From: Bacteroides sp.
GTDB taxonomy: Bacteria > Bacteroidota > Bacteroidia > Bacteroidales > Bacteroidaceae
Direction: 5' to 3'
NCBI GenBank assembly: GCA_019412865.1
Contig: DXOJ01000723.1
Coordinates: 1 to 8,747, forward strand
Length of the DNA stretch: 8,747 nucleotides
Positions 1,809 to 8,160 of the stretch are shown piece after piece. The notes beneath the pieces were generated by a model, which saw only the letters and a list, made by a program, of their open reading frames with translations, ran no database searches and was not told the DNA's origin. The translations under genes and the position numbers were made by a program. How positions within the stretch are numbered: position 1 is the stretch's first letter; each line of letters opens with the position of its first letter.

Positions 1809-1832
1809 TAAGGTTATCAAATAAGCTTGATT

Positions 1833-2735
1833 ATGAAAAAGTCTATAAAACGTTTACCCAAACGTACACAGGAAGAATTGACAGTCTTGCTGGATTTAGT
1901 GCGTAAAAGCATCGAAAATTGTCAGATGGTTATCCTGTTCGGAAGTTATGCAAGGGGAAACTATGTTTTATGGGACAGTAATATCGAATTTGGTGTTCAT
2001 ACTTCCTATCAGAGTGATTACGATATTCTTGTCGTCGTGACCGGACAGACTAAATATGTGGAAAGAAAATTGCACCGTATTACGAATCAATATCATGATT
2101 TGTTTGCTGGTCGTCGTCATGCTTTTCCACAATTTGTTGTAGAACATATTAATACCGTAAACCGTAATCTGGAAGTCAGCCAGTATTTCTTTACGGATAT
2201 AGTAAAGGAGGGTATTATGCTTTATAATAGCGGCAAACACGAATTGGCTAAACCACGGAAGTTGAGTTTTAGGGAGATTCGGGATATTGCACAAAAAGAA
2301 TTTGATAGATTATATCCTTATGCGTGTAATTTTTTTGACTTAGTGAAAATATGTTTGTCCAAAGAAGATTATAACTTATCCGCTTTTTTGCTTCATCAAA
2401 CTTGTGAAAAATTATACTATACTATTCTGATGGTCTTTACGAACTATCTTCCAAAGACTCATAAGGTTAAAGAACTTGGTGGGATGGTGAAGCGTTTCTC
2501 ACAGGAATTGACAACAGTCTTTCCTCAAAATACAGGTTCAGAAAAAGAATGTTTTGATTTGTTATGCCGTTCTTATATTGAATCCCGCTATAACAAAGAT
2601 TTCGGTATCTCACAAGAACAATTGGAATACCTTATTTCCCGTGTTGATATTCTGCGAGATGTTACTGAACGCTTGTGTAAGGAGAAAATTGCGGAATATG
2701 ATACAATGACGGAATCTGTTGATACTATAGTTTGA
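1833..2735 (+). CDS. Nucleotidyltransferase-HEPN fusion protein (MNT-HEPN, toxin-antitoxin-like)
   Basis: This 300-residue protein has two domains. Residues 1 to about 125 are a DNA polymerase beta-type minimal nucleotidyltransferase: G37-S38-Y-A-R-G42, then the D62-x-D64 metal-binding pair inside SDYDILVVV, with E104 a possible third carboxylate. About 20 residues separate the two motifs, more than in the smallest MNT proteins. Residues about 137-300 form an all-helical HEPN domain (helix with AFLLHQTCEKLYY, then YLPKTHKVKEL, then YIESRYNKDF). MNT and HEPN proteins usually act as antitoxin and toxin; in known pairs MNT AMPylates HEPN. Here both are in one chain. The HEPN half shows no RX4-6H RNase motif, so it may not be an active toxin. 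I chose ATG 1833 over TTG 1827 because it lies two codons inside, is the stronger codon, and gives the expected MKKSIK start. It has its own promoter and converges with the opposite-strand operon. Confidence 0.85.
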   Translation: MKKSIKRLPKRTQEELTVLLDLVRKSIENCQMVILFGSYARGNYVLWDSNIEFGVHTSYQSDYDILVVVTGQTKYVERKLHRITNQYHDLFAGRRHAFPQFVVEHINTVNRNLEVSQYFFTDIVKEGIMLYNSGKHELAKPRKLSFREIRDIAQKEFDRLYPYACNFFDLVKICLSKEDYNLSAFLLHQTCEKLYYTILMVFTNYLPKTHKVKELGGMVKRFSQELTTVFPQNTGSEKECFDLLCRSYIESRYNKDFGISQEQLEYLISRVDILRDVTERLCKEKIAEYDTMTESVDTIV

Positions 2736-2868: not shown

Positions 2869-3816
2869 TCATCGTTTCCGTTTAAACATAGGACAAGATA
2901 TTGCATAATCAGGAGTAGGCCGTTTAGGGATATTGGGACGTTGTAGGCCGCAATTAGCTAATCCATTTTTATTAGCCCAACTAAGATTATACTCGCAATT
3001 AAAACAAGTTTTTTTCAGGGTATTATCTTCAATCTCAATTTGTTCTGTTTGAATAGATTGACGATGCTCTTTTTGCTCACGAAGTTCCGTTTTACAAAGT
3101 CTATACTTTTGCCCATTATTTTCAATGAGTATGGGAGTTGATGAGGTAGGGGTTTCCTTTACTGCACAACACGAATATCTCAAATTACATTGTTGGCAAT
3201 CTGTTTCAGATGCTACCTTGACAGATTTTCCTCTACTCCGATAAATCGATTCTATTTCGTTAAAATAGACTTCATTGTTAATCCATCTTCTATCCGCATT
3301 TGATGATAGAAGAAATTGCTCTAATGTTTCTAAAGTCTGATTGGAAAGATCAACTTCAAGACAAGTCAGATTATGATAGTCTATATCTTGCTTATGTTGC
3401 ACTTTATAATTAAATACGAACTCTATCAGGTATTGTTTATTATCATGGGTTGTGGCAATCACATCGGGTTGTTTGTCTTCGCGCTCAAAACGACTATCGA
3501 TTTTTACATCAACAAATTCAATATCCTCCTCCTTATATATACCATAATAAGACGGCGCATGAATCCGCTTCTTTGTTTGTATAATTTGCTCTGCCAATTT
3601 ATACAATATAACCATGTAACATATTTCAAGACGGGCTCCTCGGGTATCACTATGATGGGCAAATCCATGTTCTCTTTCATCACCATGTCTGGCAAGTAAT
3701 TTTTCATGGCAATTCGGGCAAGTACATTCACAACGTAAACCTCTTGATACACTATCAACATGTACCATTTTCCCCTCGGTATTTTCAGCCCAAGAAAAGA
3801 CATACTCTTTTTTCAT
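2869..3816 (-). CDS. CoiA-like protein: N-terminal zinc ribbon plus PD-(D/E)XK-type nuclease
   Basis: A 315-residue protein resembling competence protein CoiA and its relatives. It opens with a zinc-ribbon-like region, C33-P-N-C36, followed by RHG and F52-A-H-H55, the usual CoiA order. The nuclease core is visible as P117-D118-V, then about 13 residues later I131-E132-F-V, matching the D...E-x-hydrophobic variant rather than the classical E-x-K. Two more Cys groups follow: C207-x2-C210 with C216/C217, and C271-x2-C274 with C289 and C308 close to the C-terminus, probably one or two extra zinc sites. CoiA proteins act on incoming or recombining DNA; here the close coupling to the primase-helicase gene (12 bases upstream, same strand) suggests a partner nuclease. 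The start ATG 3816 is the first in frame and lies just after the helicase stop. It converges with the MNT-HEPN gene across 133 bases with no obvious strong terminator hairpin. Confidence 0.7.
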   Translation of the reverse strand: MKKEYVFSWAENTEGKMVHVDSVSRGLRCECTCPNCHEKLLARHGDEREHGFAHHSDTRGARLEICYMVILYKLAEQIIQTKKRIHAPSYYGIYKEEDIEFVDVKIDSRFEREDKQPDVIATTHDNKQYLIEFVFNYKVQHKQDIDYHNLTCLEVDLSNQTLETLEQFLLSSNADRRWINNEVYFNEIESIYRSRGKSVKVASETDCQQCNLRYSCCAVKETPTSSTPILIENNGQKYRLCKTELREQKEHRQSIQTEQIEIEDNTLKKTCFNCEYNLSWANKNGLANCGLQRPNIPKRPTPDYAISCPMFKRKR

Positions 3817-3828
3817 ATTTGCTACTTA

Positions 3829-6681
3829 CTATAATTTTTTATTATTATACAACAACTCTAACATTTCCTCCGCAATCACACTCTCTGAAATCCTTATCGC
3901 ATTATCCTCTTCCGTATTATAACCGAGGTAATTCACACTTCCATACCATATTAATGATTTATCAATAACTGTAATATGTAAGGACAAATTCTCTTTGGCA
4001 ATTACTTTAACCCCAATCCTTTTCAATAATTCATCCTTTTCTGAATGGCATTTTACGAATACTATAATTTGAACGCCTCGTAAGGTAAGTTTTTGTAGCA
4101 TATCAAGCGTGGGAGTCCGTATGCTAAACCACAATTTGGAAGAGGATATTACTACCGATTTACGAGTACATGATAGGTCGGAAAGAAATGGCTTTAAGAA
4201 ATTCATTCCATTAAATATGATATCTGGAGAATCGTGGAAAAGATTTGTCGGATTAATTGTACTCAATTTATAGCCAACCGCTGCATATCCTTTCAATCTC
4301 CGTTTATACATGGTGTCACATAAGGACAGATGAATGTCAATGTAATCATAAATAATAACATCTTTCTTGCCTGGATACTCACGGTGCAAACGACCTGCAT
4401 ATTGTGCTACGATGCCTTTCCACGAAACGGGCAAGGCGAGAAATAGCGTATCAAGACGAGGATAGTCGAAGCCTTCTCCCACATACTTGCCTGTAGCAAC
4501 GATTGCAAGAAGTTCTGTTCTTGGAATATTTTGTAAACGTTCCATTTTCAAGCGTTTTTCTTTTACTGATTCTGAGCCGACAAGCGTTATTACATTCTTG
4601 CATTTTGAAGTAAGCATGGTTGCTAATATTTCCACATGAGAGGTCAGATTTATCAAAATAATAGGAGAACGTCCATCTTGTAATGCTTTACATACATCAT
4701 CTATGATGCGTGTGTTCCGACAGATGTCATTACTCATTCCTTGTATGGTTTGAGTATATGTTTTCTTATCATCCGTCAATTCCCGATAATTTGTAAAACG
4801 AGGTATAAGCAACCGTTCGAATGTTTGCGAAGCCATCTGTGTTTTTGCATCAGCAGAATAACGGATAGGACCACATTGCATAAAGATAATAGGTTGATGT
4901 CCGTCTTTGCGAATGGGCGTTGCCGTCAGTCCATATACATAACGGGCGTTTGAGTACTTCAATATCCGTTCGAAATTTACCGCTGAAACATGGTGACACT
5001 CGTCCACTATCACCATGCCGTAATTTCGGATAAAGGGTTTTATATCATTTTCTTCAAAACAGGATTGCATCAGGGCAATATCTACCATACTATGTAAATT
5101 GTTTCCTTTGGAATCCAAGGTCCCAAAAGGAGAAAATACTTTTTTGCGTCCACGTTTGTGTGGTGTATCTTCTTGTTTGTAATCTATCATCAAGTATTCT
5201 TCCAATCGGGTTTTCCATTGCTCGAGCAGGGCTTTGGTATGTACAAGAATAAGTGTGTTTACTTTGCGCTCCACTATCAATCCGATAGCCGCTACGGTTT
5301 TTCCAAATGCTGTAGTTCCATATAATACGCCATTGTTGTGTGGTATCAAATTTTTTATAGCTGCAACCTGTTCTTCACGTAACTCCCCTTTGAATTGAAC
5401 AGAGATTGGGGTGCCAAATTCCGTTTGATCGTTCATGCGATAAGAAACATGGTTTTCATCCAACAAATTAGTAATAGCATCCTCACATCCACGAGGTAAG
5501 GCGATGTATTTACCCGATGGCTCTGCACATGAAATAATGCGAGGTACATTATATGTAGATAACCTCATTCCCAATTTTGCATAGAATTCTGGATTTTTGA
5601 AAGAGGCAATGCGTTTTAAGTGATTAATCGCCTTTGCAGAAAGATCTTCCAAAGGAATATAAAGCATATTGGATTTTATGAGAAGTAGTTCCTTGGGGAA
5701 ATCTTCTTTTGCTATCTTTTGTGCCGATGGTGTTTCCCAAGGTTTGGCTTCGCTTGTAGTTGACAAATCTCCAAGTTCTGATGTTATTCCATGCTTCAAT
5801 AAAATCCTATCAACCAATATTTCTGAAACTTTTTGCACACCCACCAAATACGTCCATTGGTCTTCATATGGCATAAAGTTTTCGTCGACGAATACACTGT
5901 TCCCTTCCTTTCGAGCTTTGCCTTGTAGGGGCAATGCGACCAAATTTCCGAAACCACCTTCTGGTAATCTGTCTTGATTTGGGAAGAACCGGTCGTATGA
6001 CTTGAAGGTCATCCGTCCATTTCTTTCCATAGCTTCTGTTAATATGGTATTGCCTAATTTCCTCGCCTTACTTGCTTCCAAAGATGTTTCAAAGAATATC
6101 CAGACATGTGCACCGTTTCCCGAGCGTGAACGTTCAATGGCATGTGGAATCTTCCATTCCTTACAAACATTTATATAGGATAATACATCATTTTGATAGC
6201 CATGCTCGCATGATTTATCATCAAAGTCGGCACAAAGGAAGTTACATTTGTTGTCCGGGAGGATAGCATATACTCCGATTACATCGCAACCATCAATATC
6301 CTTACCCTCAAGATGTCTATAAACATCTTCATAACTCAACTCCTTAAAATGGCGATTAGGACATTCGGTACATTTATATTTCCTTTTATCACATAATTGT
6401 CTGTTCCATTCATTCAAACATACAGGTTGGTAACCAGATTTTCCACTATTCTTGCTATACCATCTTCTTGCAAAAATATCTTTCCGACCATGGAATAACT
6501 CTCTAAACAATGCGACCTTTTCTTCCAAAGACAAATGAGTGGTTACAATACTTTTTTGTGGCTTATCCTCTATATGTAGTTGCATCTTTAGATGTTTGAT
6601 TTCATCTTTTAAGACTTTGTTTTCCTCTTGGAGCCGTATATTGTCTTCAAAAAGTTCTTCGTATGTTGGGTTCTTCTTCAT
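3829..6681 (-). CDS. AEP primase - SF2 helicase - PLD-like fusion (TOTE-type conflict protein)
   Basis: A 950-residue multidomain protein. Domains in order: a coiled coil (about 7-36); a Cys cluster C88, C97, C104, C107; an archaeo-eukaryotic primase with D152-x-D154 in LCADFDD, S187-G-N-G-A-H192, and the N235-Q-D / GFGNLVALPLQG segment at 235-254; a superfamily 2 helicase with Walker A GTTAFGKT (455-462), DECHH (560-564), the LTATP motif, GEGFDYPRLD and QYAGRLHR (760-767); and a C-terminal phospholipase-D-like domain (about 820-950) with H902 and WYGSVN (912-917). The HKD motif is degenerate: after H902 comes I-T rather than x-K. AEP domains make primers or extend nucleic acid, the helicase remodels duplexes, and PLD domains cut. 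This combination is that of the TOTE conflict systems, proposed antiviral or anti-plasmid modules; function here is inferred. The frame is open to 6753, but that would overlap the ATPase gene; ATG 6681 gives a 37-base gap and starts right before the coiled coil. Confidence 0.85.
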   Translation of the reverse strand: MKKNPTYEELFEDNIRLQEENKVLKDEIKHLKMQLHIEDKPQKSIVTTHLSLEEKVALFRELFHGRKDIFARRWYSKNSGKSGYQPVCLNEWNRQLCDKRKYKCTECPNRHFKELSYEDVYRHLEGKDIDGCDVIGVYAILPDNKCNFLCADFDDKSCEHGYQNDVLSYINVCKEWKIPHAIERSRSGNGAHVWIFFETSLEASKARKLGNTILTEAMERNGRMTFKSYDRFFPNQDRLPEGGFGNLVALPLQGKARKEGNSVFVDENFMPYEDQWTYLVGVQKVSEILVDRILLKHGITSELGDLSTTSEAKPWETPSAQKIAKEDFPKELLLIKSNMLYIPLEDLSAKAINHLKRIASFKNPEFYAKLGMRLSTYNVPRIISCAEPSGKYIALPRGCEDAITNLLDENHVSYRMNDQTEFGTPISVQFKGELREEQVAAIKNLIPHNNGVLYGTTAFGKTVAAIGLIVERKVNTLILVHTKALLEQWKTRLEEYLMIDYKQEDTPHKRGRKKVFSPFGTLDSKGNNLHSMVDIALMQSCFEENDIKPFIRNYGMVIVDECHHVSAVNFERILKYSNARYVYGLTATPIRKDGHQPIIFMQCGPIRYSADAKTQMASQTFERLLIPRFTNYRELTDDKKTYTQTIQGMSNDICRNTRIIDDVCKALQDGRSPIILINLTSHVEILATMLTSKCKNVITLVGSESVKEKRLKMERLQNIPRTELLAIVATGKYVGEGFDYPRLDTLFLALPVSWKGIVAQYAGRLHREYPGKKDVIIYDYIDIHLSLCDTMYKRRLKGYAAVGYKLSTINPTNLFHDSPDIIFNGMNFLKPFLSDLSCTRKSVVISSSKLWFSIRTPTLDMLQKLTLRGVQIIVFVKCHSEKDELLKRIGVKVIAKENLSLHITVIDKSLIWYGSVNYLGYNTEEDNAIRISESVIAEEMLELLYNNKKL

Positions 6682-8008: not shown

Positions 8009-8039
8009 GGTAGTCTATTATTAAATTTGATGTCTAGTA

Positions 8040-8047
8040 CAAATATA
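8040..8047 (-). promoter_or_regulatory. -7 promoter box for the three-gene - strand operon
   Basis: On the - strand, TATATTTG matches the Bacteroidota -7 box TAnnTTTG exactly and lies 31 bases before the ATPase start codon. No TTG/TTTG is found at the expected -33 distance. Instead, the first of the TACCGAA repeats lies in the spacer, which suggests a promoter dependent on, or blocked by, a bound protein. Only the -7 box is seen; promoter activity is inferred. Confidence 0.5.
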
Positions 8048-8050
8048 CAC

Positions 8051-8160
8051 TTTTCCTACCGAACTTTTACTCTTGAATCACATTTTTCTTACCGAATATT
8101 TTGCTGCTAAATACGTAAATCCTACCGAATATCAAAAAGACTATTACTTTTCTACCAAAT
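8051..8160. repeat. Phased TACCGAA repeats (candidate operator array)
   Basis: Four copies of a short motif are evenly placed: TACCGAA at 8057-8063, 8090-8096 and 8123-8129, and TACCAAA at 8153-8159, giving steps of 33, 33 and 30 bases, close to three helical turns. The fuller unit reads roughly TTTTC(C/T)TACCGAAT, and the first two units also share AAT/AC positions in their tails; the rest of each unit has diverged. On the operon strand the core reads TTCGGTA. The array directly precedes the -7 box of the ATPase operon, so binding sites of one regulator on one helix face is the likeliest reading. Confidence 0.55.

What the first reader, a model, noticed from the sequence alone, without database searches (positions are those of the whole stretch)
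2869..6681. Primase-helicase-PLD protein tightly coupled to a CoiA-like nuclease: candidate two-gene conflict system
Seen: a 950-residue AEP/SF2 helicase/PLD-like protein and a CoiA-like zinc-ribbon nuclease lie 12 bases apart on the same strand. Established: AEP-helicase-nuclease fusions of this type are described as TOTE conflict systems, and CoiA-like nucleases act on DNA. Inferred: the pair works together, with the primase-helicase recognising or remodelling foreign nucleic acid and the CoiA-like protein cutting it. A fixed pairing with this nuclease class would be a notable variant.
Basis: partly seen in the sequence, partly recalled or inferred. Interest (0 to 1): 0.75.

Follow-up and report, generated by a model that had tools for sequence, protein, structure and literature searches.

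The report
Primase-helicase operon with swappable partners
A bacterial gene for a primase-helicase lies between an ATPase gene and a gene for a CoiA-like predicted nuclease, and in the relatives sampled the gene in front is its usual but interchangeable partner while the CoiA-like gene is only an occasional add-on; the set is predicted to act against foreign DNA, which would make it a plug-and-play defence system, but no function has been tested.

Summary
In detail: a 950-aa AEP primase/SF2 helicase gene (6681-3829, -) is followed 12 bases later by a 315-aa CoiA-like gene (3816-2869, -). (1) The pairing is not fixed: in two GTDB-family samples (786 genomes) the primase-helicase is in 64, CoiA-like in 28, both in 6, side by side in 2, one of them the sample's own centre. 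In 50 of 56 sampled copies the primase-helicase follows a same-strand gene within 150 bp; in 4 of 54 one follows it. The upstream gene is clade-specific but interchangeable (AAA_14-DUF4143, ATPase_2, AlbA_2, XRE, DUF3307, Fic, Abi_2, CoiA-like). (3) The PLD-like tail lacks the HxK pair in 52 of 52 rows that have it; primase and helicase motifs are kept. (4) CoiA-like also joins other defence operons (BREX, type IIG restriction, DndD-like), so its tie to the primase-helicase is recurrent but facultative. (5) Not a TOTE system as defined: no TPR, OB or TBP gene in the window. Best reading: a predicted three-gene anti-foreign-DNA operon in which partners would do the cutting.

The parts
8034..8132 (-). 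Three direct repeats at exactly 33-nt pitch (TTCGGTAGG/TTCGGTAAG/TTCGGTAGG cores); the last runs into a Bacteroides-type -7 element (TATATTTG; consensus recalled). Likely operator and promoter of the operon
   Evidence: Triple match 13 of 24 at lag 33, 0 of 300 shuffles; same pitch with other letters upstream of the ATPase gene in L119, L015, L094, L096
6719..8008 (-). AAA_14-DUF4143 ATPase, 429 aa; C-terminal EIDF...PIEAK (E364, D366, E379, K381) resembles a PD-(D/E)XK nuclease motif; the upstream partner of this primase-helicase clade
   Evidence: PF13173 5.9e-30, PF13635 9.9e-33; PADLOC candidate PDC-S01 4.2e-178; the four residues invariant in 6 aligned sequences (A4)
3829..6681 (-). Primase-helicase, 950 aa: N-terminal helix predicted (7-34), AEP primase (DFD, SGNGAH), SF2 helicase (TAFGKT, DECHH), C-terminal PLD-like domain lacking HxK
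3829..4200 (-). C-terminal PLD-like domain (approximate limits), predicted catalytically dead
   Evidence: PLDc_2 near cut-off in relatives; H and K never both present in 52 rows with the region, D kept in 52 of 52
2869..3816 (-). CoiA-like predicted nuclease, 315 aa: N-terminal Cys cluster (C29, C31, C33, C36), PD(118)..E(132)..K(138)/K(142), two C-terminal Cys clusters; occasional third gene
   Evidence: weak restriction-endonuclease-like fold matches

Best explanation
The locus is a tightly spaced, same-strand three-gene run, AAA_14-DUF4143 ATPase then AEP primase-SF2 helicase then CoiA-like protein, that is likely one operon and is predicted to act against foreign DNA, with the primase-helicase as the likely DNA-engaging motor and its partner proteins predicted to supply the cutting. 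Shown: gene order, spacing and domains; intact primase and helicase motifs; loss of the PLD HxK pair; a primase-helicase that in the sampled relatives is nearly always the last gene behind a clade-specific but interchangeable partner; a CoiA-like gene that joins it only sometimes and also joins other defence operons. Inferred: the ATPase represses its own operon through the three 33-nt repeats; on invasion the primase-helicase would bind and unwind or prime aberrant replication intermediates of phage or plasmid; because its own PLD looks dead, strand cutting would come from the ATPase's C-terminal ExK-type domain and, where present, from the CoiA-like PD..E..K nuclease.
For: Spacing 37 and 12 nt on one strand; the consensus scan shows no terminator-like site on the minus strand. 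Upstream partner: 30 of 35 and 20 of 21 N-intact copies have a same-strand ORF within 150 bp upstream, against 3 of 34 and 1 of 20 downstream; other ORFs of 250 aa or more in the first set: 100 of 187 upstream, 114 of 189 downstream; in the second set too few to judge (5 of 6; 18 of 24). Partner type follows the primase-helicase tree: 10 changes against a shuffled mean of 19.4, 0 of 2000 shuffles as low. AAA_14-DUF4143 in front in all 8 rows of the window's clade (5 of them close kin); partner swap: L090 primase-helicase 69% identical but ATPase 28%, L015 61% and 56%. In 56 aligned rows DFD, GKT and DECH are kept in 56; PLD HxK pair in 0 of 52. Partners include conflict families: AAA_14 in 14, DUF4143 in 12, AlbA_2 in 4 of 23 chosen neighbours; Fic, Abi_2. 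CoiA-like follows PglX-SIR2_2-PglZ-BrxL in L012, a type IIG enzyme plus specificity fragment in L001, and a DndD-like gene set in L007. A system with a CoiA domain is among those found anti-phage in an E. coli selection (two passages read, PMC9519451).
Confidence: 0.45

Rival explanations
1. Fixed two-gene system as first proposed: the primase-helicase recognises foreign nucleic acid and the CoiA-like protein is its dedicated nuclease.
For: 12-nt spacing in the window; 4-nt overlap in L002; CoiA-like directly upstream (15 nt) in L006 and L116.
Against: Adjacent in 2 of 64 genomes with the primase-helicase and 2 of 28 with CoiA-like; 13 of 16 CoiA-like loci lack the primase-helicase in the DNA held, up to 10 kb each side; order and strand vary.
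Confidence: 0.08
2. The CoiA-like gene is a defence-island passenger with no functional tie to the primase-helicase; the working unit is ATPase plus primase-helicase.
For: CoiA-like occurs without an evident defence neighbour (L003, L005, L009, L011, L016, judged by eye) or beside unrelated systems; L119 has the ATPase-primase-helicase pair without it, though its primase-helicase is cut short.
Against: Very tight spacing on one strand in four loci (window, L002, L006, L116) and three separate joinings on the tree.
Confidence: 0.25
3. The primase-helicase is a replication or repair gene of mobile elements, and its neighbours are cargo.
For: ORFs resembling four ORFs taken by eye for tyrosine integrases in 13 of 40 loci; three annotated integrases and TniB/TniQ beside plasmid relatives; one near full-length relative on an IMG/VR contig; 246 plasmid records with a match, 65 covering 80%.
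Against: Partner type is inherited with primase-helicase clades and partners include conflict families; of 1081 phage records with a match none covers 80% of the protein.
Confidence: 0.2

Closest known systems
TOTE conflict systems (TPR, OB, TBP, Effector; the 2022 review was not read, known here through passages of PMC12458937)
   Same: Shares the AEP domain that Pfam names AEP-TOTE (E 1.6e-97)
   Different: No TPR, OB or TBP family among the five window proteins or the 23 chosen neighbours
CRISPR-associated primase-polymerase (PDB 7nqd/7nqf; that these are the CAPP enzyme is recalled)
   Same: AEP domain homologous (7.3e-15; PADLOC PrimPol 5.2e-83)
   Different: NF040561 95.9 bits against a cut-off of 200; fused to an SF2 helicase and PLD-like tail
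CoiA competence/defence proteins (CoiA-domain system of the E. coli selection, PMC9519451)
   Same: CoiA_N-like Cys region plus PD..E core; tblastn 2e-16 to an annotated 'competence protein CoiA family protein'; relative P0238 so named by a source
   Different: CoiA_N below Pfam cut-off; Bacteroidales subfamily with extra Cys clusters, in varied operons; likeness to the E. coli protein not checked
AAA_14-DUF4143 ATPases (PADLOC candidate PDC-S01)
   Same: Near full-length match 4.2e-178
   Different: Here first gene before a primase-helicase and behind 3 x 33-nt repeats

Membership tests
TOTE conflict system | AEP domain of the TOTE type | tested here: met
   PF22548 E 1.6e-97, residues 78-315 of the 974-aa ORF; AEP is not part of the spelled-out name
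TOTE conflict system | TPR, OB (cold-shock) and TBP components | tested here: not met
   None in the five window proteins at E<=1; only 8.7 kb available
Active PLD/HKD nuclease | HxK(x4)D motif | tested here: not met
   H and K both present in 0 of 52 rows with the region, window included; D in 52 of 52
AEP primase | DxD and SxH-type catalytic motifs | tested here: met
   LCADFDDK and SGNGAHVW in the window; DFD in 56 of 56 rows
SF2 helicase | Walker A, DExH, motif VI | tested here: met
   TAFGKT, DECHH, QYAGRLHR
CoiA family | CoiA Pfam models above cut-off | tested here: inconclusive
   CoiA_N 21.6 of 26.3 bits; no other CoiA model hit at E<=1
CoiA family | PD..E catalytic core | tested here: met
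   P117, D118, E132 invariant in 29 rows, one relative entered twice; D and E in 32 of 33 wider rows
CoiA family | Role in competence | not testable with these tools
   no phenotype data
PD-(D/E)XK fold (CoiA-like) | Restriction-endonuclease-like fold | tested here: inconclusive
Fixed primase-helicase/CoiA pair | Adjacency in most homologues | tested here: not met
   2 of 64 genomes, one of them the sample's centre
Anti-phage defence system | Interference with phage or plasmid | not testable with these tools
   no experiment

The most novel reading that the evidence does not exclude
The primase-helicase is the constant motor of a plug-and-play defence family with a single slot in front of it that is filled, clade by clade, by unrelated sensors or effectors (AAA_14-DUF4143, ATPase_2, Schlafen AlbA_2, Fic, Abi_2, XRE, CoiA-like), and the CoiA-like protein is a roving accessory nuclease that BREX, type IIG restriction, DndD-like and primase-helicase operons each recruit in Bacteroidales.
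Probability: 0.35. Interest if true: 0.72.

Novelty: new variant of a known kind. Interest (0 to 1): 0.52.

Why it matters
If true, one conserved primase-helicase serves as a common chassis for many effectors, and one small nuclease family moves between otherwise unrelated defence systems; both can be tested by deleting or exchanging single genes in laboratory strains, and both give annotators a reason to look at the gene in front of the primase-helicase rather than behind it.

Tried and rejected
Fixed pairing: rejected by counts. TOTE membership: rejected on the wording read in PMC12458937; the original review was not read. Active PLD: rejected. Phage records: no CoiA-like match; 1081 records match the primase-helicase, the 20 listed in its helicase part only, 0 covering 80%. 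Viral contigs: no CoiA-like; 18 primase-helicase loci, 1 near full length (L029, no CoiA-like in the 18.7 kb held); no ATPase, close relatives only. Structure of the primase-helicase: pLDDT 54.9, not searched further. Solved structures with the CoiA-like profile: one match at E 0.3.

Paper searches: 'TOTE conflict system', TOTE+primase+helicase+conflict system as whole words, CoiA+nuclease+defense system+primase, Iyer+Aravind+TOTE+primase and DUF4143+primase found no paper; TOTE+helicase+biological conflict and a TPR/OB/TBP search found only PMC12458937; CoiA+anti-phage+nuclease found four, of which passages of PMC9519451 were read; CoiA+BREX found one, seen as a listing; a primase/helicase/defence search found 78, 20 listed; in one of these, on BREX, the word CoiA does not occur in the main text (PMC12839542). 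Not in print is therefore claimed only for these searches of this library.

Limits and dropped rows. Only the best few candidates per genome were scored (up to 5 for CoiA-like, 2 for the primase-helicase), so second copies can be missed. The samples' centres G015 and G007, and G005, G008, G014 and G016 in them, had come from the CoiA-like scan and are not independent draws. Of the 40 fetched neighbourhoods 31 have at least 1 kb on both sides of the primase-helicase and 20 at least 5 kb; the second family was read with flanks of about 1.5 kb. A weak CoiA-like piece 7 kb away in L115 (E 4.8e-6) was not counted as adjacent. The tree left out L124, L125, L127, L128 and L129 (fragments or distant) and used only the first piece of broken L117 and L123; it is a quick tree. 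The label test used 33 of 40 rows (L098-L102, L110 and L121, without a close partner or with a transposase-like gene in front, unlabelled). The upstream counts leave out L126 (G007) and copies whose start is missing, and exclude the window, L002, L006 and L029, which were found by other routes. The shuffles are first-order Markov samples.
Full report
What is there. The window (8747 bases, no whole genome held) carries on the minus strand an AAA_14-DUF4143 ATPase (8008-6719, 429 aa), a 950-aa primase-helicase (6681-3829) and a 315-aa CoiA-like protein (3816-2869), separated by 37 and 12 bases; convergent to them are a fused nucleotidyltransferase-HEPN protein (1827-2735) and a SWIM zinc-finger protein (2-1744, open at the window's start).

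Is the pairing fixed? No. A scan of GTDB contigs with the CoiA-like profile gave 16 loci; the primase-helicase lies in the DNA held (up to 10 kb each side) in 3 (L002, L006, L015). In 399 genomes of the GTDB family of Phocaeicola vulgatus (centre G015) the primase-helicase (E<=1e-50) is in 39 and CoiA-like (E<=1e-10) in 19; both in 4 (G015, G437, G640, G755), adjacent in 2 (G015, G437). In 387 genomes of the family of G007 they are in 25 and 9, both in 2 (G007, G838), on different contigs. Together: 64 and 28 of 786, both 6, adjacent 2; without the centre G015, which had been found through CoiA-like, adjacent 1. Among the 40 primase-helicase neighbourhoods fetched (up to 7.5 kb each side; 31 with at least 1 kb and 20 with at least 5 kb on both sides) only L116 has an adjacent CoiA-like gene, itself cut by the contig end; L115 has a weak piece 7 kb away; G015 is the separate locus L015. 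Yet adjacency recurs: downstream on the same strand (window 12 nt; L002 4-nt overlap), upstream (L006 and L116, 15 nt) and convergent (L015), in three parts of the tree.

The regular partner is upstream. Of N-intact primase-helicase copies with a readable upstream ORF, 30 of 35 (first family) and 20 of 21 (second) follow a same-strand ORF within 150 bp; 3 of 34 and 1 of 20 C-intact copies are followed by one. Other ORFs of 250 aa or more do so in 100 of 187 and 114 of 189 in the first set, and in 5 of 6 and 18 of 24 in the second, where the flanks are short. So the primase-helicase is normally the last gene of a short same-strand run. The 30 upstream genes of the first family are AAA_14-DUF4143 in 11, XRE-type HTH in 7 (several behind an AlbA_2-type gene), DUF3307 in 3, ATPase_2 in 2, transposase-like in 2 (L110's by eye), and one each of AlbA_2, CoiA-like, Abi_2, Fic and DUF2971 (Pfam for chosen members, likeness for the others). 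In the second family, by likeness to these, ATPase_2 in 7, AlbA_2 in 4 (one weak, one 222 bp away), AAA_14-DUF4143 in 1, XRE in 1, 8 unclassified. Partner type follows the primase-helicase tree (10 changes; shuffled mean 19.4; 0 of 2000 as low) but is exchanged between clades and even within one: L090's primase-helicase is 69% identical to the window's while its ATPase is 28%; L015's are 61% and 56%; L119's 83% (over 562 aa) and 91%. All eight rows of the window's supported clade, five of them close kin, have an AAA_14-DUF4143 gene in front.

CoiA-like elsewhere. The same family sits directly behind PglX-SIR2_2-PglZ-BrxL in L012 (24 nt after BrxL; PADLOC PglX 5.9e-303, PglZ 2.3e-94, BrxL 1e-251), behind a type IIG enzyme and a specificity fragment in L001, behind a DndD-like, PDC-S20 and EEP-nuclease gene set in L007 (similar by eye in L008), behind a C5 methylase with one gene between in L004, about 2.6 kb from Cas9 in L010, and overlapping an AAA_33/Zeta-like gene in L013 (similar by eye in L014); in L167 and L168 it follows an ATPase recognised by eye only, which the AAA_14-DUF4143 profile did not pick up. 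Five of the 16 loci (L003, L005, L009, L011, L016) show no such neighbour by eye. It therefore looks like an add-on that different defence operons take up (inference). A system with a CoiA domain is among the anti-phage systems of an E. coli selection (two passages read, PMC9519451); whether that protein resembles this subfamily was not checked.

Regulation. Upstream of the ATPase lie three repeats at 33-nt pitch (8132-8034), the last running into a Bacteroides-type -7 element (consensus recalled). The same pitch with different letters stands before the ATPase gene in L119, L015, L094 and L096 (0 of 300 shuffles each); L097 has a 23-nt pitch; L090 is not significant (64 of 300), L118 and the ATPase in L167 have none; the tested starts of primase-helicase (3), CoiA-like (2), ATPase_2 (2), AlbA_2 (2) and HEPN (1) genes have none. 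A self-repressing ATPase that has changed its target site is the simplest inference. A control with Bacteroidales ATPases of this family that lack a primase-helicase could not be made from the loci held.

Classification. TOTE means TPR, OB, TBP, Effector (passages read in PMC12458937); these were not found, so the window shares a domain with TOTE but is not a member on present evidence. The AEP domain is also close to CRISPR-associated primases (PADLOC PrimPol 5.2e-83; PDB 7nqd 7.3e-15, identity as CAPP recalled) but misses the NCBIfam cut-off.

Verdict. A real, probably co-transcribed three-gene set. A defence role is likely from the partners and neighbours, but untested; a mobile-element role is the main rival (integrase-like ORFs in 13 of 40 loci; TniB/TniQ in L152).

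Noticed in passing
window 8034-8132: Three direct repeats at exactly 33-nt pitch before the AAA_14-DUF4143 gene; pitch conserved with diverged letters in L119, L015, L094, L096.
   Followed up: partly
window 1827-2735 and 2-1744: Single-chain nucleotidyltransferase-HEPN protein (MNT/HEPN toxin-antitoxin-like fusion) and a SWIM zinc-finger protein (PADLOC candidate PDC-S62, 7.5e-9) convergent to the operon: the window is a cluster of conflict-type genes.
   Followed up: no
L012:36-11077: BREX-like gene set (PglX, SIR2_2, PglZ, BrxL) with a CoiA-like gene 24 nt after BrxL, followed by an AlbA_2-like gene (by eye).
   Followed up: partly
L029, L107, L108, L115: SatD-like (by eye) and DUF3307 genes directly in front of the primase-helicase, 1-4 nt gaps; function of this trio unknown.
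   Followed up: no
L152:2805-8283: Primase-helicase relative overlapping a TniB-TniQ gene set on a Sphingobium plasmid.
   Followed up: no
G016:C3:95009-102685 (L179): CoiA-like gene in two pieces about 7 kb apart with other genes between, as if interrupted by an insertion.
   Followed up: no
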